Shown in pieces: positions 3,901 through 12,012 of a stretch of DNA of 20,485 nucleotides. Origin of the DNA: a virus. The notes under the pieces were generated by a model. It was not told where the DNA came from. It saw nothing but the letters and a program-made list of their open reading frames with translations, and ran no database searches. A program made the position numbers and the translations under genes. Where the stretch lies: IMG/VR virus record IMGVR_UViG_3300032315_000017, positions 1 through 20,485 of that record, one strand, 5' to 3'. Position 1 is the stretch's first letter. Every line of letters starts with the position of its first letter.

Positions 3901-5345
3901 TTAAGTCTATCGGAAGAGGTAATCTCAGGAGAGGCAAACCAATCAAAGACAGAAGATCTAAGTTCTGAAGCTTCTGTGGCAGAGGCCAGTCCCTTCATAC
4001 CAAGGTTTCTCTCAAGGGCTACAACATACCCCTCAGGGCCATCACCCTTGGCATTAACACCATACGGTTCTACCTTACCACCAAAGGGCTTTGCAAACTT
4101 CTGAGCATTAGCCCAGTCGTTGAACGGTACACCGTCTTCTCTGCCAAGAGTAATCTTCACGGCAAAGTTATCCAGACCTAAGTCTCTTTCCTGAATATCC
4201 AAGACATGGAACTTGTTCTTTTTCTCAAGGTAATTCTTGTACCTTGTCTTTGAAGCCTGAAGCATCTCAGGTGAATAGATACCACGGTAAGCCGCAGCAA
4301 CCTTTTCAAAGTAATCGTTGGCTACTTCATTAGCCAGAGTAGGTTTAAGGGTGGCACCAAGGCCATTAGAACCCACAGCAGAAGACCCGGGAGCCGCATG
4401 AGTGGCAAGGTTGACTGATGTCTGCCCAGTACTCAAGGCATTGTCTACCACAGCATTAGCCGCTGCTTTGCCTCCTGTAGCCTCTGCTACCTGTGCAGCA
4501 TCCGTAGCCAAAGAAAGCTTTGCAGTTGTACCTGTTGTCCTTGCTACGGCTTTACCAGCAGTAAGAACCTTACCAATAGGAACAAAGCCAGCCACATCAG
4601 CAGCCAGCCAAAGACCTTCGTTCTCTGTTGTACCCATCGTATTGATTGTGTTAAACCGGGACCAGTACAGAAGAGAATTATCACCAAAGATACCTAGCTC
4701 TTTGGCCTTTTGAGCAAACTTTCTGGCAAGCATTCTCTTCTTGTTTAGATCAGTCTCAAGGAAGATCTCCATGTACTGTTCTCTGCCAAGCTGAGACTTA
4801 CCCATCCAGTCTCCAGCACTTGTTTCTGTAACGCCAAGGAAGTTCTCAGCAACACCTACAGTGGCTTCTCTGGCAAACATACCAAGGAAAGATCCAACAT
4901 ACCCAAGCATGGACTCATCCGGGGCATTGGCCTTAAACTCTTCAGACAGGATAGCCATCGTCAAAGCAGTCTGATCCACATCAGGATTAAATCTGTCTAC
5001 GACAATATTCTCAATTACGTCTTTGCTTTCCTGTGCATTCTCAATGTACTGGGTATTCTTCTGATAAGTATTCAGAGTTTGTCTAAAAGATTCTGGTGTA
5101 AAGTTTTCTGTATAAGCCTTCTCAACAAGATCAGGCTGTTCCTTTTCCATGAAGATATCGTAGTACTTTCCGTCTTCAACAGCAGTCAAAGCTTCTTGAA
5201 CAGGGATGTTGTTATGCTGTGCATACCTCTCTGCCAAAGAGAGCTTGTACTTCTTGCTCTTCTCAACCTTTTGAGAGACTTCTTCCTCGCTAGGAAAAAG
5301 ACTTTCTACTACCTCAAAGGTTCCATCTTCAGGGAAAAGGCTCAT
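990..5345 (-). CDS. Giant internal virion / DNA ejection protein (T7 gp16-like by position and size)
   Basis: At 1451 aa this is the largest gene in the window, close to the size of T7 gp16 (about 1.3 thousand residues). It follows a small gp14-like protein through a TAATG overlap at 5345. The N-terminal 230 residues are charged and helical. A hydrophobic segment near residues 245-262 leads into an Ala/Thr/Gly-rich linker to about 330. Soluble mixed sequence follows. The C-terminal third has amphipathic or hydrophobic stretches near residues 965-1015 and 1180-1205, as expected for a protein that enters or crosses membranes during genome ejection. I see no lysozyme or lytic transglycosylase motif at the N-terminus, where T7 gp16 carries one. 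Known of the family: such proteins are packaged inside the capsid and ejected to form a channel across the envelope. That this one does so is inference from size, place and neighbours. Confidence 0.8.
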   Translation of the reverse strand: MSLFPEDGTFEVVESLFPSEEEVSQKVEKSKKYKLSLAERYAQHNNIPVQEALTAVEDGKYYDIFMEKEQPDLVEKAYTENFTPESFRQTLNTYQKNTQYIENAQESKDVIENIVVDRFNPDVDQTALTMAILSEEFKANAPDESMLGYVGSFLGMFAREATVGVAENFLGVTETSAGDWMGKSQLGREQYMEIFLETDLNKKRMLARKFAQKAKELGIFGDNSLLYWSRFNTINTMGTTENEGLWLAADVAGFVPIGKVLTAGKAVARTTGTTAKLSLATDAAQVAEATGGKAAANAVVDNALSTGQTSVNLATHAAPGSSAVGSNGLGATLKPTLANEVANDYFEKVAAAYRGIYSPEMLQASKTRYKNYLEKKNKFHVLDIQERDLGLDNFAVKITLGREDGVPFNDWANAQKFAKPFGGKVEPYGVNAKGDGPEGYVVALERNLGMKGLASATEASELRSSVFDWFASPEITSSDRLNTTLKRGLQQIGYVESEIVKEHNNLLKKVSRADKRGLDQVISKLNIEDSDWYDLSEFKDVYRKQTGREATQEVQDAYVSTYKLSETARWLDADKVLKRTSGERYGQFMGTGDGINFYRMKKLDDVGNLPSTKEYPQNFVLDLSTGKVIDRKTLFALKRNKKQNNLYQIVDVDNAPVIDGKKVLYATGSLKSSRPVTLSDVVPKIAGGYRETGNIHGFLASRKIRSDLSGNVLNLTPGIVFVGRTAKELADAAKDIKSLMKTLADLKSGAISKSAADDLVKANNGFNPNIEDIDLFEKYLAKSGIEGDVEIVTKGAELPSVGVGQFENYRLGKFTTYEELYAKGNLDNDVIYGYGSGQFKQVDSLVSVERDFAKGINYIAEREYSYKAIEGFLKGARANNAITNLSQIEKLPFVEQLRQAKFANNKAGDLFRTERRVIMNRLNETNDFAQVWNRRMTGFGEFIFEKSGIDVIDKMSFRPDVALRSFAFDLKMGLFNIDQLLVQGSAALSIMAVSPLHGLKAAAAYLPMRIAMINRNPEVLKALYKRSSAFIGMPEKDFLEVVDYMYKSGRFQVNQNISEINSTYDMTRGVIRNIRESGRMFFNEGDRIGRLMATNVAYRDFRKAYPTLDIATDSGYRIMDEFITKRADTLTMNMTRASAAPWQQGFWSLPTQWLGYQARLMENIFFGRNLSGAEKTRLGLSQIAFFGAAGVPFASVGLNAFVDQTSEGINKDLYTTLRYGMLDLILSNVTSEDTALSARLGTGEGLNQLWQDIMDKNFIEILGGPAGSIAYDSGMGAIGLVGSIFTSDITLKQYDLNKVLRNISTWNKATQAYYLMQTGEFVNKKGQVLAEGMNPWNVLWNTLGIPFQEVEMYYDMKQTLFAEKDMIASVTDRVRELTRLKGKYIQERDYRSAEGIRDEIKSLLAPLNFAQQKDVIKRSQESWKSLSEIAIQQDSLTAKQGLSRQFQKLGE

Positions 5346-5836: not shown

Positions 5837-6301
5837 TTAAATATCCTTCCAATAAATAACTTCTTTTTCTGAGTACCCTAGCCCTTTATAAAGTCTACCC
5901 AGATTCTTTGGGCTAAGGTTTGTGAAAGTACTAACAGAAAGTACGTCTGCTTTCTTGTATCTACCCCATGCCTCAAAAGCCTTGAGCATTTCTTTTCCGT
6001 ACTTCCGATATTCTTCCTCTACAAAGATCGACATACAGTATGCCATCATGGAAGAATGAAAGTAATGCGGGGTCAGGTAGCCAAAGACATAACCTTGGAC
6101 TTTGCCATTGATGACAAGCGAGATACCAGTAGCGCTGTCATTCTTCAGGGCTTCTTTGAATAGGGCTTCTATCCGGTCTTCCTCAAACTCTCTGTCTGGT
6201 ACAGCAGCTTTGACAGGAACCTTGGATAGTCTTACGATGTCTTCATAGTCTTCTGGTCTGAAGTATCTTATACTGACGTTAGTATCTTGGATTTGATCCA
6301 C
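5837..6301 (-). CDS. GNAT-family N-acetyltransferase in the tail/ejection operon
   Basis: The predicted 154-aa protein has the GNAT layout: an N-terminal strand with SIRYFRPEDYEDIVRL (residues 10-25), a central strand pair around SLVINGKVQGYVFGYL (61-76), the beta4 segment CMSIFVEEEYRKYGKEML with an acetyl-CoA pyrophosphate-loop-like RKYGKE (99-104), and a C-terminal NLGRLYKGLGYSEKEVIYWK (133-152). The start is GTG at 6301, overlapping the end of the tail tubular B-like gene by 23 bases; no in-frame ATG gives the full domain. GNAT enzymes move an acetyl group from acetyl-CoA to an amine. The substrate here is unknown. It sits between the tail tubular B-like and gp14-like genes, exactly where T7 has gene 13, so it may be a virion or assembly protein as well as, or instead of, an enzyme. 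Confidence in the fold is high, in the role low. Confidence 0.8.
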   Translation of the reverse strand: MDQIQDTNVSIRYFRPEDYEDIVRLSKVPVKAAVPDREFEEDRIEALFKEALKNDSATGISLVINGKVQGYVFGYLTPHYFHSSMMAYCMSIFVEEEYRKYGKEMLKAFEAWGRYKKADVLSVSTFTNLSPKNLGRLYKGLGYSEKEVIYWKDI

Positions 6302-8705
6302 TTACAATTTCCCAACCAATAAGATAGAAATCCTTGCCAGCTTGAGACTCAAAGCGCATACGCATTACTCTGCCCTTACCTCTGATTTTAGTCCTAGCAA
6401 CAATTGTATCATATGGATAAGTAAATGTCAAATCATCTGGATCAACCGTAGGATAGTTTATAATTCGGTATACCTCACTCGGGTTACTCCACCGGGAACT
6501 ATCACCAGACAGGTCCCATTTAACTGTCAGAAGACATCCTGAGGGGTAGTCAGCCGTATACCCACCACCCACAGCTACAAAGTTCTGTTCTGTCCTCTTG
6601 AAGTATGTGGTGATATACGGGGTATTCTTCTTCAGCGTAGCAGAACCCATGAAATCATATCCAGTCTCTGCATACGAAGAGTAGTCAGCAGATCCCCAAT
6701 CCACAAAGTCTCTGTTTCTAAACTCTGCAAAGGTAAGCTTACCAGAAGCAGTCCTGACAATAAACTTTACTTCTGTCAGATTAGAGCCAGAAGAAGTAAT
6801 GGTCTGGATAACATTGTCTGAAGCTGCGGTAATAACATTATCAGCATTGACAAGGATATCATAGTCTACAGGAGAAGATCCAAGACCGGAAAGGAAAAAG
6901 GCATCAAGAATATACGGACTTGTACCAGTTGTATTCTCAACTTGCCAAGGGAAATAAGCTTGGAGTGTCATATCCAAGATAAGGATATTGGTTTTCTTAT
7001 GCTCCACAGTTTCAGTTTCAGAAGGATACATCCAGTAAATACGGTTATTCAACCTGTCATAGACTGATGAAGCCTCAATCTTTTTCTGATTACTAATCCC
7101 GTCATAGAATGTCTTGATAGTCTCTGAGATATTGGTAACAGCAGGGGTACTGTTTTCATTCGAGATTGCAAAGATACCAGACACACCCCAATAGATCGGA
7201 GTACCGGATACGTTTACCAGAGTCTTTCTGTCCACAATACCAAAGTTAGAGATCTTACTGACGTAGTACTCAGTAGCCTTAAAGACCTGATCAACACCAC
7301 CGATAACCCATACACCATTGCTGGCAAGAACATAAAGAACAGATCCTGTGGTAAACAAGGCTAGGATGTTATTGGCTTCTGGAATAACAATATACCCACC
7401 GTCAGAGTCTACAAGTCCTGCGGTATCTTCTGCGGAAGGATCTGCGTTCTGATAGCAACGTCCAAAGTCTTTCTTATTCTCAATAGTCTTGGTAAAAAAG
7501 ATCTTACCACCGTTCTTTACTGAGTTAAGTCCTGCATACCAAATACGACCAGCATAGGCTTCTGTGCAGTTAAATCTAGCAGTCTCAACAATTGTGGTTA
7601 GACCTGTGATAGCACCCGGAGGAGCATCAGCAGTAGCAGAAGTTCTGTTTTGACTAAAAAAGTTTAATATATAACGACCATTAGGAGCAAGAGTAGACCC
7701 TTGCTTCAAAGCAAAAAATTGATCATCACTCATAGAAGTATTAGTATTTCTACTAACCCACCACGGTTTATTTCTTGGTGGATAATCTGATCTATTTAAA
7801 CCACTGGAATTGCTTCTCCAATAAGTGTATGGACTAGATCTGTTTCCTAAATTAGTTTTTTCAGCCCAACCCATATTATAAAGATCATACTGGTAATTTT
7901 TTGTAATACTTGTAGGAGTCTTTTCAGTAGCAGTATCCCAATAAGTTTCATAAACAAAACCTGTGGCAGACGTTGTAGCCAGATTTGCGCCTGTCAGGGC
8001 ATACGTAAAAGTTGTACTTGTTGGTGTAGAAGCCACCACAAAAGATCCATTAAAGATACCAAGAGAACCATTGACTTGGATTGCATCTCCTACATTAAGC
8101 ACATGCGCTGCATTTGTTGTAATAGTAACAACATTACTTGTTCTTGAAATAGAAGTTATGTTTGAGGACATACCAAGATATTCAAAGTCTCTGACCTTGA
8201 TAACAATAATCTCAACAGAGATTGTATCAGAGGATGGAGTGTACTCAACAGAGATAGGGTTGATAGCCGCAGAAGTAATAATCAAAGAACCAGTAATTGA
8301 CGAAGTACTAATAGGCGTCTCAGACACGCTGTAACTGTTACCAGCAGAGTAGTTGCTAAGGTTGATGCTAAAAGACTTCTCAGAAGCAGAAGTAGTATCA
8401 TAGCTTTTGTCGTAGAAGTAAACCATATTGTTTACCTGTACAACAAGGAACTCTGTACCACCGATACCAGACACATTCTGCCAGTTTTCTTTATGAATAA
8501 AGTCACCGGAGGCTACAGAAAAGCTACTGTCCTGATAGTTAATCTCGTATTCAATACCTCTACGTCTCTGTCTGGCCCCGTTCTTCAACAGGTCACAGTT
8601 AAGTTCATCTGAAGAAGCACCCTCAGGGAACGTCATCACTGTAGCTTCAGTGACAAGTCCCTTGTTGAAGGTGTTTACAGGCTTTAGATTAACTTGCTGT
8701 GGCAA
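6279..8705 (-). CDS. Tail tubular protein B-like tail nozzle protein (T7 gp12-like)
   Basis: This 808-aa protein opens MPQQVNLKPVNTFNKGLVTE, then PEGASSDELNCDLLKNGARQ, the opening pattern of T7 gp12-like tail tube proteins: an initial glycine-containing strand, then a 'D/N ... G ... R' segment. The remainder is beta-rich. Residues about 183-253 look like an inserted beta-sandwich repeat of a type common in phage structural proteins (VVTITTNAAHVLNVGD, FNGSFVV, TTFTYALTG). The start is TTG at 8705 with an AAGGA ribosome binding site eight bases upstream; the first in-frame ATG is about 23 codons in and would remove the conserved opening. It overlaps the 116-aa gene by 17 bases and the acetyltransferase by 23. 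Expected role: distal part of the short tail tube on the particle. The stretch 7680-7920 is more AT-rich than its surroundings. Confidence 0.8.
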   Translation of the reverse strand: MPQQVNLKPVNTFNKGLVTEATVMTFPEGASSDELNCDLLKNGARQRRRGIEYEINYQDSSFSVASGDFIHKENWQNVSGIGGTEFLVVQVNNMVYFYDKSYDTTSASEKSFSINLSNYSAGNSYSVSETPISTSSITGSLIITSAAINPISVEYTPSSDTISVEIIVIKVRDFEYLGMSSNITSISRTSNVVTITTNAAHVLNVGDAIQVNGSLGIFNGSFVVASTPTSTTFTYALTGANLATTSATGFVYETYWDTATEKTPTSITKNYQYDLYNMGWAEKTNLGNRSSPYTYWRSNSSGLNRSDYPPRNKPWWVSRNTNTSMSDDQFFALKQGSTLAPNGRYILNFFSQNRTSATADAPPGAITGLTTIVETARFNCTEAYAGRIWYAGLNSVKNGGKIFFTKTIENKKDFGRCYQNADPSAEDTAGLVDSDGGYIVIPEANNILALFTTGSVLYVLASNGVWVIGGVDQVFKATEYYVSKISNFGIVDRKTLVNVSGTPIYWGVSGIFAISNENSTPAVTNISETIKTFYDGISNQKKIEASSVYDRLNNRIYWMYPSETETVEHKKTNILILDMTLQAYFPWQVENTTGTSPYILDAFFLSGLGSSPVDYDILVNADNVITAASDNVIQTITSSGSNLTEVKFIVRTASGKLTFAEFRNRDFVDWGSADYSSYAETGYDFMGSATLKKNTPYITTYFKRTEQNFVAVGGGYTADYPSGCLLTVKWDLSGDSSRWSNPSEVYRIINYPTVDPDDLTFTYPYDTIVARTKIRGKGRVMRMRFESQAGKDFYLIGWEIVSGSNPRY

Positions 8706-9039
8706 CCTTTAATTCCTTTTTCTTCAGAGGAGGGGCCTTCTCTTCACCAAACATCTTATCCCACTTAGCCTGTTTGGTTTCCTTGGCATGTTCAAGGAAA
8801 AACTTAAGAGCCTTTAGAGCAATCTTTCTTGAGGTAAAAGTCCCTGATAGTTCTTCAGCAACCTCACCACCATTGTCCTGACGGATCTTGAACATCCCAT
8901 ATCCGTCTTCAGGCTTGTAAATAATATACTTTGCTTTTCTCTTAGATGAAGTAACACTCATCAGAGTGCCTTCAGGATTCTCTTCAACAATAATATCAGT
9001 AACTCTTCCTGCGTCAGTAACGCTTTCTTCCATAATCAT
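8689..9039 (-). CDS. Hypothetical phage protein between the two tail tubular-like genes
   Basis: I do not recognise this 116-aa protein. It is soluble and has a compact central part (KAKYIIYKPEDGYGMFKIRQ, then GTFTSRKIALKALKFFLEHA). The last 25 residues are highly charged and Lys-rich. There is no signal peptide, membrane helix or catalytic motif. Two start choices exist, ATG at 9039 or ATG at 9033 (MIME...); the ribosome binding site does not clearly decide between them. It overlaps the upstream adaptor gene by 26 bases and the downstream tail tubular B-like gene by 17, so it belongs to the tail operon. A small tail assembly or minor structural role is possible but unsupported. Confidence 0.7.
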   Translation of the reverse strand: MIMEESVTDAGRVTDIIVEENPEGTLMSVTSSKRKAKYIIYKPEDGYGMFKIRQDNGGEVAEELSGTFTSRKIALKALKFFLEHAKETKQAKWDKMFGEEKAPPLKKKELKVATAS

Positions 9040-9772
9040 TCAGAACTCTCATTTCTCCGGTCTTGGATCTGTTGTTCCTCTGGAAGTATCTGTGCTTCCG
9101 TGCGAACTGTTCTACTTTAGGATCAGCCCCGCCCTTGAACAGGGAAAAGGCCCGTGACTTAACTTCTGCAAGGTAGTAGGGGAAGATCGTATCATCGATA
9201 TCAGGGACAGCAGCATCTGTCAGAGTAAAGCTAGGGATCTTTATTCCAAGGACCATTGTCTTGCTTGTCTGGAGAGTGTTGTCCACAGCAGAGTCATACG
9301 AATCAAAGCAAAGATACCTGTCATCAAAAGAGGTAAAGCTGTCAGGCATCTTGTTGTTAAGGATCGGAAGAGAGATACCTGAGGTAGGGTCAGTAACAAT
9401 GATGACCTCAGTAGCCGTAGTATCTCTTGTGACAATGCTCTTGATAAACTCTTCCGGTGGGACATAGGTGATAAGCTTATACTCAAGCTCACCAACAGTA
9501 TCAGATACGTTGTACCTCAACTCCTTGATCTCTGTAACAGAGTCAGCATCCATGTAGTTAGGACGAGAGGAGTTAGACAGACCAGAGACTGTCATCAACT
9601 CTGTATGCTCTGGAAGATCAACAGTTGTGATTACATCGTAATAGACGCTTTTACAGATATTAGCAATCTGGGTAGCCTCTACTGTATCAGAGATAGAGTT
9701 AACCTCATCAGAGTCTAGGTCATTCAGTACATCCTGAACAACCTCTAGCAATGTCATTTTAATTGTTGCCAT
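9014..9772 (-). CDS. Tail tubular protein A-like head-to-tail adaptor (T7 gp11-like)
   Basis: This 252-aa protein begins MATIKMTLLEVVQDVLNDLD, a helical opening with 'LLEVVQDVLNDLDSDEVNSI' typical of short-tail adaptors that dock on the portal. It continues with 'ANICKSVYYDVI' and ends with a basic, aromatic C-terminus (AEVKSRAFSLFKGGADPKVE, RKHRYFQRNNR). Size and location, directly before a large tail tubular B-like gene, match T7 gp11 (about 196 aa) and its longer relatives in other podoviruses. The ATG at 9772 shares one base with the TAA of the preceding gene (TAATG), giving coupled translation. Expected role: ring between the portal and the distal tail tube. Assignment rests on synteny and sequence character, not on a catalytic motif. 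Confidence 0.78.
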   Translation of the reverse strand: MATIKMTLLEVVQDVLNDLDSDEVNSISDTVEATQIANICKSVYYDVITTVDLPEHTELMTVSGLSNSSRPNYMDADSVTEIKELRYNVSDTVGELEYKLITYVPPEEFIKSIVTRDTTATEVIIVTDPTSGISLPILNNKMPDSFTSFDDRYLCFDSYDSAVDNTLQTSKTMVLGIKIPSFTLTDAAVPDIDDTIFPYYLAEVKSRAFSLFKGGADPKVEQFARKHRYFQRNNRSKTGEMRVLNDYGRKRY

Positions 9773-10395
9773 TACCGTGCCTTATGAACTCTGGCTGTGA
9801 TCAAACCAATGTTAATCAGATTGATAGTACCTGAAGTGGCTTTTGCATAGATTCTGGCTCCATGAGTTACCATAGCAGAAGTTACTGGAAACAAATTAGA
9901 GTCTGTAAGAACCTGTCCTGCCGCAGAGGACTTTAGTGTAATGGTTGATTCACCAAGTAAAGTAGAATAAGTTGTACCGTCAGAAGATCCATACAACTTA
10001 AAATCCATATTAGGAGGAGCGCCAGAAGCACTATAAATTGTAGCTGTGATAGTTAAAGAATGAAGATCCCCGGCTGAGACAAACTGAAGAGTCTCTGTAG
10101 ACAGGTTCATCAGAGCCGTTGTTGTGCCTGTGAGGGAGATCGGAAGCTGGGTGACATTTACGTTGGTATCAAAAGGGATCAGCACCTCAGTTGTACTGAC
10201 TGCCAAAGCAGTTGTACCTACGTAAAAAGCATTAGAGTACTGACCCCAGCCAGTACCCGGAAGTCTGTTAACTGCTGTCCATGCACCAGAGCCAGAACCA
10301 TTGGCAAGATAAGCCGTATTAGCAGCAGCCGTAGAGGCACCCTTAGGTTCATGCAGATTAGGATCAGAAAGAGTTGAATGCTGTACGTTTGCGAT
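9772..10395 (-). CDS. Structural protein with a probable ATC start codon
   Basis: The open frame runs without a stop from 10419 to 9772. The obvious TTG start at 10206 would lack a typical phage structural N-terminus lying upstream in the same frame: ANVQHSTLSDPNLHEPKGAS, followed by ANTAYLANGSGSGAW. The 'DPNLHEPKG' segment and the 'YLANGSGSG' that follows are features I recall from conserved N-termini of phage structural proteins. The only codon placed for initiation is ATC at 10395-10393, eight bases after a strong GGGAGG ribosome binding site (10409-10404). An in-frame TAG sits at 10422-10420. No ATG or GTG occurs in frame between that stop and 10206. From ATC the product is 207 aa, and its second half is beta-rich with repeated strands, like head or tail decoration domains. 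It is the first gene after the promoter at 10481-10508. The ATC start is inference; a base error (ATG read as ATC) would explain it equally well. Confidence 0.75.
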   Translation of the reverse strand: MANVQHSTLSDPNLHEPKGASTAAANTAYLANGSGSGAWTAVNRLPGTGWGQYSNAFYVGTTALAVSTTEVLIPFDTNVNVTQLPISLTGTTTALMNLSTETLQFVSAGDLHSLTITATIYSASGAPPNMDFKLYGSSDGTTYSTLLGESTITLKSSAAGQVLTDSNLFPVTSAMVTHGARIYAKATSGTINLINIGLITARVHKAR

Positions 10396-10403
10396 TTTAG
10401 AAT

Positions 10404-10410
10404 CCTCCCT
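10404..10410 (-). promoter_or_regulatory. Ribosome binding site deciding the ATC start
   Basis: The minus strand reads AGGGAGG here, a near-perfect Shine-Dalgarno sequence, eight bases before the ATC codon at 10395. It is among the strongest in the window and has no ATG, GTG or TTG at a suitable distance, so it marks the true start of the 207-aa gene rather than the TTG at 10206. Confidence 0.75.
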
Positions 10411-10449
10411 TAACTCTCTCTAAAAGACAATACGTTATCCTTTAGATAT

Positions 10450-10480: not shown

Positions 10481-10508
10481 ATTATAGCGATTCCAAAAGA
10501 AAAGTCAA
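10481..10508 (-). promoter_or_regulatory. Sigma70-type promoter for the tail/ejection genes
   Basis: On the minus strand TTGACT (10508-10503) and a perfect TATAAT (10486-10481) are separated by 16 bases, close to the ideal spacing for a host sigma70 promoter. Transcription would start near 10472-10475 and run into the 207-aa gene and the tail operon. The -10 box lies inside an inverted repeat (CTATA...TATAG, 10487-10471) that could be an operator. This is one of the few non-coding gaps in the window, which supports a regulatory role. Confidence 0.7.
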
Positions 10509-10529
10509 GGGGGACCTGGAGATCCCCCT
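10494..10529 (-). terminator. Intrinsic terminator after the capsid genes
   Basis: The minus strand reads AGGGGGATC, a TCCA loop, then GGTCCCCCT, a nine-base-pair GC-rich stem with one G-T wobble. TGACTTTTCTTTT follows. It begins 12 bases after the stop codon of the 164-aa gene. It should end or attenuate the capsid transcript. The T-run is interrupted by C, so read-through is plausible. Confidence 0.82.
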
Positions 10530-10540
10530 CAACAAGAGCG

Positions 10541-11035
10541 TTAGTCTTTTTCGATGTACTCGACAATCAGCTTGCCTGTACCCGCCGTAACCGTACCACC
10601 CTTCGTCGTGTAGATGTAGCCATCCGCAGTAGCCGAGAAGTTGGTAAAGACACCAGACGAAGCAGCAGCAGCCGCACCATCACACAGAAGCGACTTAGTA
10701 GCCGCAAGGTTAGCCTGAGTACCCAGAGTAGATGTCAGGATAGCATCATCGTCTGTAGAAGTTGAACCGTCTTTAGTAGACAGACCAACCTTCAGAGTAC
10801 CAGAAGTACCTGTCATCGCGGTCTTACCAATGAGGTAAGCTCTGACAATCTGAGCGCCCGCAGGAATGAAGGCTTCGTGATTATCAGCCGCAGCCGAGAT
10901 GTTTGTAGTGTAGTCAAGGTCCACTTCAAGAACCTTAACAGCACCCAGAGTTTTTAGACCAGCACCAGTCTGTCCCGCTTCCGGGCCTGTGAAACGGACT
11001 TCAAGTCCGTCAGAGTTTGTCCAATCAGTACTCAT
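10541..11035 (-). CDS. Probable capsid decoration or minor head protein
   Basis: This 164-aa protein starts MSTDWTNSDGLEVRF and is rich in A, G, T and S with alternating beta-strand patterns (KVLEVDLDYT, AQIVRAYLIGKTA, GKLIVEYIEKD). It has no membrane segment or catalytic motif. A strong AGGAGG ribosome binding site lies five bases before the ATG. It follows the major capsid gene after 14 bases and is itself followed by an intrinsic terminator, so the two are expressed together at high level. Codon use is GC-richer here and in the capsid gene than in flanking genes, which fits high expression. A capsid surface or stabilising protein is the likeliest role by position, but I do not recognise a named family. 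Confidence 0.65.
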   Translation of the reverse strand: MSTDWTNSDGLEVRFTGPEAGQTGAGLKTLGAVKVLEVDLDYTTNISAAADNHEAFIPAGAQIVRAYLIGKTAMTGTSGTLKVGLSTKDGSTSTDDDAILTSTLGTQANLAATKSLLCDGAAAAASSGVFTNFSATADGYIYTTKGGTVTAGTGKLIVEYIEKD

Positions 11036-11049
11036 ATCTTATCCTCCTA

Positions 11050-12012
11050 TTAAACCGAGGGGTTCGACAGAACAGTAACAAGGTTCTCAGGGCGATAGAG
11101 CTTGACACCGTAACGAGCGGTAGTCACAAACTCTGTGCGCTGGAAGTCTTTGTTATATTCTGTATCAACTTCAGGCATCTGTCTCCAAGCACCAATGAAC
11201 GGAATAACTCCCGCATCAGCAGAGAAGAACAGGTTGGCCTTATAGTTCGCACGCGAAGCACTACCTGAACCATCGGCCAGTGTAAGTGTTTCAGAGACGA
11301 TTGTAGTCAAACGCTGCGAAGTGTACACATCGAAGCCGTAGACGTTACGGACAAAGCGCATACCCGTGGCAATGCCAGAGGACACGATACCATCAAACAT
11401 CGGATTGAAACCCGAAGAACCGTTGATGATAGACGATGTTTCAATCGTATAAGCAACAGACGGGTCAACAATAGCGACACGATTGTTGGCCGACACGTTA
11501 GCCAGATTCAGCGAAAGGTTAGCACGAGCAAAGTCATTTACGCTGATAATACCCGAAGAACCAGAAGCAGCATAACGATGGGGGGCACCGTTAATTGTGT
11601 TGGCATTGCCAGCGGTCTGCTGAGACTGAAGACCAAGAACGGCCTCCTCGACATGCTCCATAATGGCACGCTCCTGTTCCGGCACGAAGCGCGAAACAAG
11701 TTCGTTCATGTAGAACATATCCTGTTCAGCCTTCTTGGTCACATACGTACCCGAAGAAAGGTACTCAGTGATCTGGAAGGTGAACTGACCAGTATCAAGC
11801 GGGCGATACTTTACAGCTTCGTCTTCAGCGTAGTCATCAACATACGCCTGACCAATGCTGGGGATCTTGAAAGTGTCGCCGTCAGGGAACTCCTGAAGCC
11901 AACGAACATACGTCTGAGCCATAAGCTCATCACGAAGAATCTCCTTCAGCTCACGCGACCAAACCTCTGCGCGAGTAAGGAGAGAAACAGTACTAGCTGT
12001 CATACCTGACAT
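11050..12012 (-). CDS. Major capsid protein
   Basis: This 320-aa protein lies directly after a scaffold-like gene and before the 164-aa head protein. Features of a podovirus-type HK97-fold coat protein are visible: an N-terminal helical segment (VWSRELKEILRDELMAQTYV), a spine-helix-like region with MNELVSRFVPEQERAIMEHV (about 102-121), a central ASGSSGIISVNDFARA, and a P-domain-like C-terminus ending RYGVKLYRPENLVTVLSNPS. Start: ATG at 12012 with AAGGAG eight bases upstream is preferred to the second ATG at 12003. Its codon choice is GC-richer than that of the neighbouring genes, as expected for the most abundant virion protein. It forms the icosahedral shell. Assignment is by context plus sequence pattern. 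Confidence 0.85.
   Translation of the reverse strand: MSGMTASTVSLLTRAEVWSRELKEILRDELMAQTYVRWLQEFPDGDTFKIPSIGQAYVDDYAEDEAVKYRPLDTGQFTFQITEYLSSGTYVTKKAEQDMFYMNELVSRFVPEQERAIMEHVEEAVLGLQSQQTAGNANTINGAPHRYAASGSSGIISVNDFARANLSLNLANVSANNRVAIVDPSVAYTIETSSIINGSSGFNPMFDGIVSSGIATGMRFVRNVYGFDVYTSQRLTTIVSETLTLADGSGSASRANYKANLFFSADAGVIPFIGAWRQMPEVDTEYNKDFQRTEFVTTARYGVKLYRPENLVTVLSNPSV

What the first reader, a model, noticed from the sequence alone, without database searches (positions are those of the whole stretch)
9772..10419. Structural gene apparently initiated at ATC
Seen: the open frame extends 63 codons upstream of the TTG at 10206, through a familiar phage N-terminus (HSTLSDPNLHEPKGAS). No in-frame ATG or GTG lies between the TAG at 10420-10422 and 10206; a CTG sits inside the conserved motif. 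A strong GGGAGG lies eight bases before an ATC codon, and after it the sequence reads A-N-V-Q-H-S. Established: ATT and ATC are rare but genuine bacterial starts (E. coli infC uses ATT), sometimes under initiation-factor-dependent control. Inference: the gene starts at ATC, which would lower or regulate expression of the first tail-operon protein. An ATG-to-ATC sequencing error or a real mutation is the main alternative.
Basis: partly seen in the sequence, partly recalled or inferred. Interest (0 to 1): 0.75.

Follow-up and report, generated by a model that had tools for sequence, protein, structure and literature searches.

The report
Phage spike gene starting at AUC
A virion protein gene of an uncultured phage almost certainly begins with the very rare start codon AUC, left behind together with a ribosome-binding site by a lost homing-endonuclease gene, and relatives of this gene have repeatedly ended up with equally rare start codons.

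Summary
The gene at 9772-10395 (minus strand) has no ATG/GTG/TTG between the in-frame TAG (10420-10422) and TTG 10206. Its conserved N-terminus begins at ATC 10395-10393, where relatives have ATG/TTG/GTG. A sequencing error is unlikely: 15 distinct family genes, window included, start at ATC, ATA or ATT; the tree forces at least 7 changes of state; the next gene starts ATG in all 15.

The closest relative lacks 34 nt here. The insert reads as the end of an HNH endonuclease gene (CLLERVKGGF*), which in four related lineages sits at this start codon. The endonuclease takes over the leader and start; its 3' end supplies a Shine-Dalgarno sequence; the structural gene has TTG, ATC or ATA, not ATG (0 of 8 contexts with the endonuclease, 119 of 153 without). 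The window is a deletion scar that kept ATC.

The protein is predicted to be a TNF/C1q-like knob behind a conserved anchor. Weak, IF3-sensitive initiation is inferred, not shown. AUC starts are known (infC); I found no report of start-codon takeover by an endonuclease.

The parts
9772..10395 (-). Structural gene, 207 codons from ATC; conserved N-terminal anchor plus predicted TNF/C1q-like knob
   Evidence: Translation; homologues; AlphaFold2 model mean pLDDT 78 with residues 1-20 under 50; Foldseek Sf6 tail-needle knob 3rwn E 4.3e-6, PRD1 P5 1yq8 E 1.2e-4
10393..10395 (-). ATC, proposed start codon
   Evidence: Column of ATG/TTG/GTG in relatives; no NTG or CTG between the in-frame TAG and the motif's first His
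10404..10411 (-). Shine-Dalgarno AAGGGAGG, 8 nt from ATC
   Evidence: Sequence; computed anti-SD duplex energy -11.3 kcal/mol
10397..10429 (-). Remnant of the 3' end of an HNH endonuclease gene, reads CLLERVKGGF* (TGT...TAA, ten codons and stop), one base before ATC
   Evidence: 28 of 35 nt identical to the tail of the L013 HNH gene, 26 of 35 to L148; best of 115 other distinct leaders 18 of 35
10390..10424 (-). Stretch where alignment with the closest relative L099/L002 breaks; net insert 34 nt
   Evidence: blastn pieces end at 10389 and 10425 in an otherwise collinear 12.8 kb at 93-94% identity; pairwise alignment
10420..10422 (-). In-frame TAG that closes the frame upstream
10428..10430 (-). 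TTG, apparently the ancestral start triplet (used by L002/L003), now opening a 6-codon out-of-frame ORF that ends TAA just before GGGAGG
   Evidence: Alignment; sequence
10438..10443 (-). Ancestral Shine-Dalgarno AAAGGA, shared with L002/L003
   Evidence: Alignment
10419..10446 (-). Predicted 12-bp hairpin that pairs the old SD region with the endonuclease remnant
   Evidence: whole leader z -1.44, not significant
10481..10508 (-). Sigma70-type promoter-like site TTGACT-16-TATAAT
   Evidence: 11 of 12 matches (3 sites found in the region, 1.7 expected by shuffling); aligned in most of the 14 relatives, absent in L013 and L018 there
10504..10533 (-). Terminator-like hairpin after the upstream gene
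10339..10365 (-). DPNLHEPKG, conserved core of the N-terminal anchor
9014..9772 (-). Adaptor-like (tail) gene, ATG start; control gene
   Evidence: phrog_7592 'tail protein' E 1.6e-74; gene in the same place annotated adaptor in CRP-4 and MEP401
10541..11035 (-). Upstream small gene, ATG start, no family match; possibly a decoration protein (guess)
11050..12012 (-). Major capsid protein gene
   Evidence: phrog_267 E 6.4e-37

Best explanation
The gene is translated from AUC at 10395-10393 under a strong Shine-Dalgarno sequence. SD and AUC are the retained 3' end of an HNH homing-type endonuclease gene that once sat at this gene's start codon. On insertion the endonuclease took over the gene's leader, ribosome-binding site and start, and supplied a new SD within its own last codons plus a non-AUG start for the structural gene, so that the structural protein was made by ribosomes finishing the endonuclease (translational coupling). 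In the window most of the endonuclease gene has been deleted, leaving a scar of about 34 nt with SD and AUC. AUC is presumably a weak, IF3-sensitive start, offset by the strong SD, giving low output of a spike/knob protein needed in few copies. Shown by sequence: start column, scar, recurrence, association with the endonuclease. Inferred: past coupling, reduced expression, IF3 dependence, copy number.
For: Start column: 56 other distinct N-termini start NTG at the ATC column (52) or within 2 codons (4). Recurrence: 15 distinct family genes with ATC/ATA/ATT, window included; 10 of them have no NTG or CTG between the in-frame stop and the motif. In these 15 phages the next gene has ATG at the aligned start, 15 of 15; over all loci where it could be read, 127 of 127 next genes have an NTG before their motif. 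Parsimony needs 12 changes of state, at least 7 forced by well-supported branches. Long maintenance: L263 (ATC) and L272 (ATA) differ at dS 1.42 with dN/dS 0.11; L153 and L275 (both ATC) dN/dS 0.03. HNH: L013-type, L148, L287 and L219 carry an HNH gene (phrog_2255, E 1.3e-13 to 4.3e-18) directly before the gene; it begins ATGGC or ATGACNAT like the target gene and ends 1 nt before (L013, L148), overlapping (L287, ATAG) or 7 nt before (L219) the structural start. Start by HNH presence: with HNH 0 ATG, 4 TTG, 4 ATH; without 119 ATG, 17 TTG, 4 GTG, 13 ATH. Scar: 28 of 35 nt against 18 of 35 for the best of 115 other leaders.
Against: No expression, ribosome-profiling, read-level or protein data. 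Of the 15 ATH genes only 3 have an HNH gene and 1 (the window) a scar; 11 have neither in the upstream stretch searched (up to 900 nt; 115 nt for L282), and a search of 13 whole records found HNH only in those of L261 and L219. All ATH genes except L153, L219 and the window were found with patterns that demanded the rare start; in the start-blind set ATH is 2 of 145. The eight HNH-bearing contexts are four lineages, not eight independent cases, and ATGGC is a common way for genes to begin. The 26 annotated phage records that I read with a clear start use NTG. For L153, L266, L285 and L293 an in-frame NTG further upstream is not excluded. The TTG-to-ATC step in the window needs two changes or import with the element.
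Confidence: 0.72

Rival explanations
1. ATC is an assembly or sequencing error or a recent damaging mutation of an NTG start, so the gene normally starts at ATG or TTG there.
For: Closest relative L002/L099 starts TTG; ATC is unique among 57 distinct N-termini with the nearest motifs; an exact scan for the window leader in IMG/VR found no second copy.
Against: Fourteen other family genes start ATC/ATA/ATT; three of them recur without a difference in contigs of different metagenome accessions; L148, found through its HNH gene and not through the start, has ATC after the same kind of tail; the gene is intact and dN/dS is 0.16-0.27 against three relatives.
Confidence: 0.08
2. Translation really starts at the downstream TTG 10206 or at CTG 10356 and the upstream frame is chance.
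For: They are the next start-type codons in frame.
Against: The first 63 codons hold the most conserved part of the family, DPNLHEPKG, which would be lost or cut; pN is far below pS there against L069; the SD stands 8 nt before ATC.
Confidence: 0.04
3. Ribosomes enter from the out-of-frame 6-codon ORF at TTG 10430 by frameshifting or by termination and reinitiation, and AUC is used only by such ribosomes.
For: TTG-TCT-TTT-AGA-GAG-AGT-TAA ends 14 nt before ATC; in three of four HNH-bearing lineages stop and start are 1 nt apart or overlap; reinitiation and its sensitivity to IF3 are documented in E. coli (PMC2268962, passages).
Against: The old SD and TTG are predicted to be paired in a hairpin; no slippery site that I recognise (own reading).
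Confidence: 0.16
4. The rare starts have nothing to do with endonucleases: this gene is simply under selection for low translation, and ATC/ATA/ATT arise repeatedly; the HNH insertions are coincidental.
For: Eleven of 15 ATH genes show neither HNH nor scar; ATH sites have somewhat stronger SDs (15 against 94 ATG sites, median -6.4 against -5.2, p 0.014, but the set was partly selected for GGAG); TTG is also frequent, 21 of 145.
Against: No HNH-bearing context has ATG (0 of 8, four lineages); among phages with identical adaptor proteins the HNH-bearing ones have TTG and the HNH-free ones ATG (L090/L103, L079/L113); the window leader itself is an HNH tail.
Confidence: 0.3

Closest known systems
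infC (IF3 gene) of E. coli, ATT start, ATC in Streptomyces; and sigR with GTC, repressed by IF3 (PMC5472188, passages read)
   Same: Rare start used by a normal gene; presumed IF3-sensitive initiation
   Different: Here a phage structural gene; the rare start was acquired repeatedly and can follow endonuclease insertion; no link to IF3 shown
Free-standing homing endonuclease genes of T4-like phages, some possibly coupled in translation such as nrdA/mobE UAAUGA (PMC2988022, passages)
   Same: Small endonuclease gene beside conserved phage genes, variable occupancy, stop and start of neighbours close or overlapping
   Different: Here the endonuclease sits at the neighbour's start codon, takes its initiation site and leaves it a non-AUG start
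orf28 of Streptococcus thermophilus phage TP-J34, predicted AUU start, sequencing error excluded by resequencing (PMC3952083, one passage)
   Same: Phage gene with a predicted AUH start
   Different: A single case; the passage seen gives no recurrence or origin
Zobellviridae genomes CRP-4 and MEP401
   Same: Order capsid - this gene - adaptor; N-terminal anchor
   Different: Their copies start ATG and no endonuclease like these was found in the stretches fetched

Membership tests
Genes with a genuine AUH start (infC-like) | Start column held by NTG in homologues, frame closed upstream, no NTG in between | tested here: met
Genes with a genuine AUH start (infC-like) | Rare start maintained under purifying selection | tested here: met
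   Met for relatives L263-L272 and L153-L275; in the window itself it looks recent
Genes with a genuine AUH start (infC-like) | Repression by IF3 / demonstrated initiation at AUH | not testable with these tools
   needs experiment
HNH homing endonuclease element | HNH endonuclease family profile | tested here: met
   phrog_2255 E 3.7e-15, 4.3e-18, 1.2e-15, 1.3e-13 for the copies in L013, L148, L287, L219; Pfam HNH_2 passes its cut-off only for L148 (21.3 against 21), is sub-threshold for L013 and not listed for L287 and L219
HNH homing endonuclease element | Present or absent at the same site in otherwise closely related phages | tested here: met
   L090 against L103 and L079 against L113 have identical adaptor proteins; L013 leader equals the L005 leader up to the insertion point
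HNH homing endonuclease element | Cleaves the empty allele and is copied into it | not testable with these tools
   needs experiment
HNH homing endonuclease element | Window holds an intact copy at this site | tested here: not met
   Only the last ten codons and the stop remain
Zobellviridae | Gene order terminase-portal-capsid-this gene-adaptor and similarity to members | tested here: met
   DNA matches are short (3-5% of the query)
Zobellviridae | Genome-wide criteria | not tested
   The window is a 20.5 kb fragment
TNF/C1q-like knob of phage needles and spikes | Jelly-roll knob fold | tested here: inconclusive
   Foldseek E 4e-6 to 1e-4 for the phage knobs, TM about 0.45 (query) to 0.58 (target), about 13% identity; no sequence match in the PDB

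The most novel reading that the evidence does not exclude
HNH homing endonucleases parasitise the start codon of a phage spike gene. They insert just behind the ATG, use it for themselves and regenerate the gene's beginning with ATG changed to ATC, ATA or TTG. The change both destroys the endonuclease's own target at the 3' junction (immunity) and makes the structural gene depend on ribosomes arriving from the endonuclease (addiction against deletion). Many or all AUH starts in this family, including copies without an endonuclease, are relics of or resistance alleles against such invasions.
Probability: 0.27. Interest if true: 0.86.

Novelty: new variant of a known kind. Interest (0 to 1): 0.74.

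Why it matters
Gene finders usually accept only ATG, GTG and TTG, so such genes are truncated or missed (as in MW202697.1). A structural gene that repeatedly acquires AUH starts gives natural replicates for asking how phages tolerate or exploit IF3-sensitive initiation. The scar shows how a mobile endonuclease can rewrite a neighbour's start codon and leave it rewritten after the element is lost.

Tried and rejected
Sequencing error, and starts at TTG 10206 or CTG 10356: rejected by recurrence and conservation. RF2-like +1 frameshifting at the HNH stop (GGA-TTA-TAA-A): considered because an SD precedes the stop; put aside because the codons before the stop (TTA, ATA, TTC) would re-pair poorly (own reasoning, not computed). 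Phage-borne initiator tRNA: ARAGORN found no tRNA in 14 of 15 stretches scanned and one tRNA-Trp in L287; the stretches are partial. Exact scan for the window leader in IMG/VR: 0 matches. Scan of bacterial genomes for ATH-start members: 93 stretches, none with the family motif (one search had looked at 80 of them). HNH of L148 against annotated phages: no match at E 1e-3; the L219 HNH found 26 records, all under 60% identity. Hairpin in the window leader: not significant as a whole (z -1.44). Solved-structure sequence search: none at E 0.1. A first HNH scan was made before loci L260-L293 existed and so missed the HNH of L287/L261; repeated.

Literature: searches for AUH starts in phage genes and for HNH insertion with start codon and ribosome binding site (7 papers). 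I read passages, not whole papers, of seven (PMC5472188, PMC6316719, PMC2988022, PMC3952083, PMC6389784, PMC7283392, PMC2268962); the rest I saw as listings only. Among the passages the only predicted AUH start in a phage was TP-J34 orf28. Nothing like start-codon takeover was seen; this covers the open library only. A paper on initiation from all 64 codons that I recalled is not held.

Full report
What the sequence shows. On the minus strand the frame that ends at 9772 is open back to a TAG at 10422-10420. Between that TAG and TTG 10206 there is no in-frame ATG, GTG or TTG; the frame reads RELREDSK-I-ANVQHSTLSDPNLHEPKGAS. ATC stands at 10395-10393, 8 nt after AAGGGAGG.

Homology fixes the start. 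A search of IMG/VR returned 60 related loci. Two motif scans blind to the start codon gave, with those loci and the window, 57 distinct N-termini: 38 ATG, 12 TTG, 2 GTG and 1 ATC (the window) at the window's ATC column; the other 4 have NTG within two codons. The first 63 codons hold the most conserved part of the protein and evolve under constraint (pS 0.24, pN 0.061 against L069; only 2 + 2 changes against the closest relative).

The rare start recurs. A scan demanding GGAG, 5-9 nt and then ATH before the family's N-terminal motif returned 36 stretches; 17 of them belong to the family, 13 distinct genes; the rest look like chance. With L219 and the window this gives 15 distinct genes starting ATC, ATA or ATT. 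In 10 of the 15 no NTG or CTG lies between the in-frame stop and the motif; L153, L266, L285 and L293 have an in-frame NTG further upstream and L275 a CTG. Three of the genes were found without a difference (750, 354 and 227 nt compared) in two or three contigs of different metagenome accessions. The large number of ATH genes thus comes from a directed search and is not a frequency. The same scan of bacterial genomes gave 93 stretches, none with the family motif.

It is specific to this gene and old in places. The next gene (adaptor) has ATG at the aligned start in all 15 of these phages, and an NTG precedes its motif in 127 of 127 loci where it could be read (a loose motif). On a tree of 133 adaptor proteins the ATH state needs 12 changes, at least 7 forced by well-supported branches (quick search, some long branches; changes may be gains or losses). 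L263 (ATC) and L272 (ATA) have dS 1.42 and dN/dS 0.11; L153 and L275 (both ATC) dN/dS 0.03. Six of 15 ATH starts are directly preceded by a further in-frame ATC, against 0 of 112 NTG starts; which of the two codons starts is open.

Where the window's start comes from. The window is collinear with L099/L002 (start TTG) at 93-94% over 12.8 kb, but alignment breaks between 10389 and 10425, where the window has 34 extra nt. In relatives of the L013 type (6 contigs with identical HNH protein) a 143-aa HNH gene (phrog_2255 E 3.7e-15) lies at this place. It begins with the leader and first codons that the HNH-free relative L005 uses for the structural gene itself, and it ends CLLERAKGGI-stop, one base before a TTG start. 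The window insert reads CLLERVKGGF-stop, one base, ATC. Over 35 nt it matches the L013 tail at 28 and the L148 tail at 26 positions; the best of 115 other distinct leaders reaches 18. The window therefore carries the scar of such a gene.

Other insertions. L148 (62% identical HNH) has the HNH gene followed by TAA-A-ATC; L287/L261 have one whose TAG overlaps an ATA start as ATAG; L219 has one followed by ATC-ATA. Each HNH gene begins like its target gene, ATGGC or ATGACNAT; ATGGC is a common beginning, so this alone is weak. Counted over 161 contexts, HNH-bearing ones have 0 ATG, 4 TTG and 4 ATH; HNH-free ones 119 ATG, 17 TTG, 4 GTG and 13 ATH, the window's scar among the last. These contexts are not independent: the four TTG are one lineage and two of the ATH are one phage; many ATH contexts come from the directed search. 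L090 and L103, and L079 and L113, have identical adaptor proteins but differ in start, TTG with HNH and ATG without. L275, a close relative of L148, has the same ATC without the HNH gene, while its sister L243 has ATG in a nearly identical leader; this may be a second loss. Eleven of the 15 ATH genes have neither HNH nor a recognisable scar, and of 13 whole records searched only those of L261 and L219 hold the HNH gene.

What the protein is. An AlphaFold2 model has a disordered N-terminus and a beta sandwich from about residue 50 (mean pLDDT 78). Foldseek finds the Sf6 tail-needle knob (E 4.3e-6), the PRD1 vertex protein P5 and TNF/C1q domains. Annotated relatives are mostly called hypothetical protein; some possible or putative head fiber, tail fiber or TNF-like. 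A knob or spike carried by a short anchor fits; low copy number is inference.

Mechanism. Shown: position, SD, scar, recurrence, association. Inferred: AUC gives weak initiation held in check by IF3, as for infC and sigR (PMC5472188, passages), and the strong SD offsets it. In HNH-bearing relatives the stop-start distance of -2 to 7 nt suggests reinitiation by ribosomes that finish the HNH gene. Why HNH alleles avoid ATG is open: immunity of the regenerated site, addiction, or selection for low output.

Annotated relatives. Of 27 records of the phage collection that I chose and read for this gene (read; the searches had listed 72, 65 and 90 records), 26 start NTG; three of the 27 are uncultured contigs and some are near-copies. 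The exception is MW202697.1, an uncultured contig with ATT behind AAAGGGG, whose annotated gene starts only after the motif. Host and read support of the window are unknown.

Counts were compared with the calls again; one search was added to verify the aligned ATG of the next gene and to cover the 13 genome stretches that one search had left out.

Noticed in passing
L152 (minus, ATC beginning near 7281), L156, L158 6147: A different gene (N-terminus ANKKISQLP or similar, perhaps tail-fibre-like) also appears to start at ATC behind GGAGGAACTTAAA in three divergent contigs, frame closed by TAA eight codons upstream; the homologue in cyanophage KBS-S-2A starts ATG at that column.
   Followed up: partly
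L410 (MW202697.1), 480-875: GenBank virome contig with an apparent ATT start; the annotated CDS begins only after the conserved N-terminal motif.
   Followed up: partly
L193, about 4654-4720 on its minus strand: The upstream structural gene runs out of frame into the DPDIHEPKG motif; the start region of this gene seems deleted.
   Followed up: no
15 ATH loci: Six of 15 ATH starts have an extra in-frame ATC directly before them (0 of 112 NTG starts), giving ATC-ATA or ATC-ATC.
   Followed up: partly
L399 (PV659690.1), L404 (MT066160.1): The gene is split or its beginning not annotated in some cultured phage records although the frame is open with a TTG or ATG start.
   Followed up: no
window 6279-8705 and 5837-6301, minus strand: The large tail appendage gene is read from TTG and the GNAT-like gene from GTG in the ORF list; not checked against relatives.
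   Followed up: no
L160 2897-3655: A repetitive, possibly endonuclease-like ORF (Cys motifs, many YYVENKAA-type repeats) lies between the terminase and portal genes of an ATC-start phage; identity judged by eye only.
   Followed up: no
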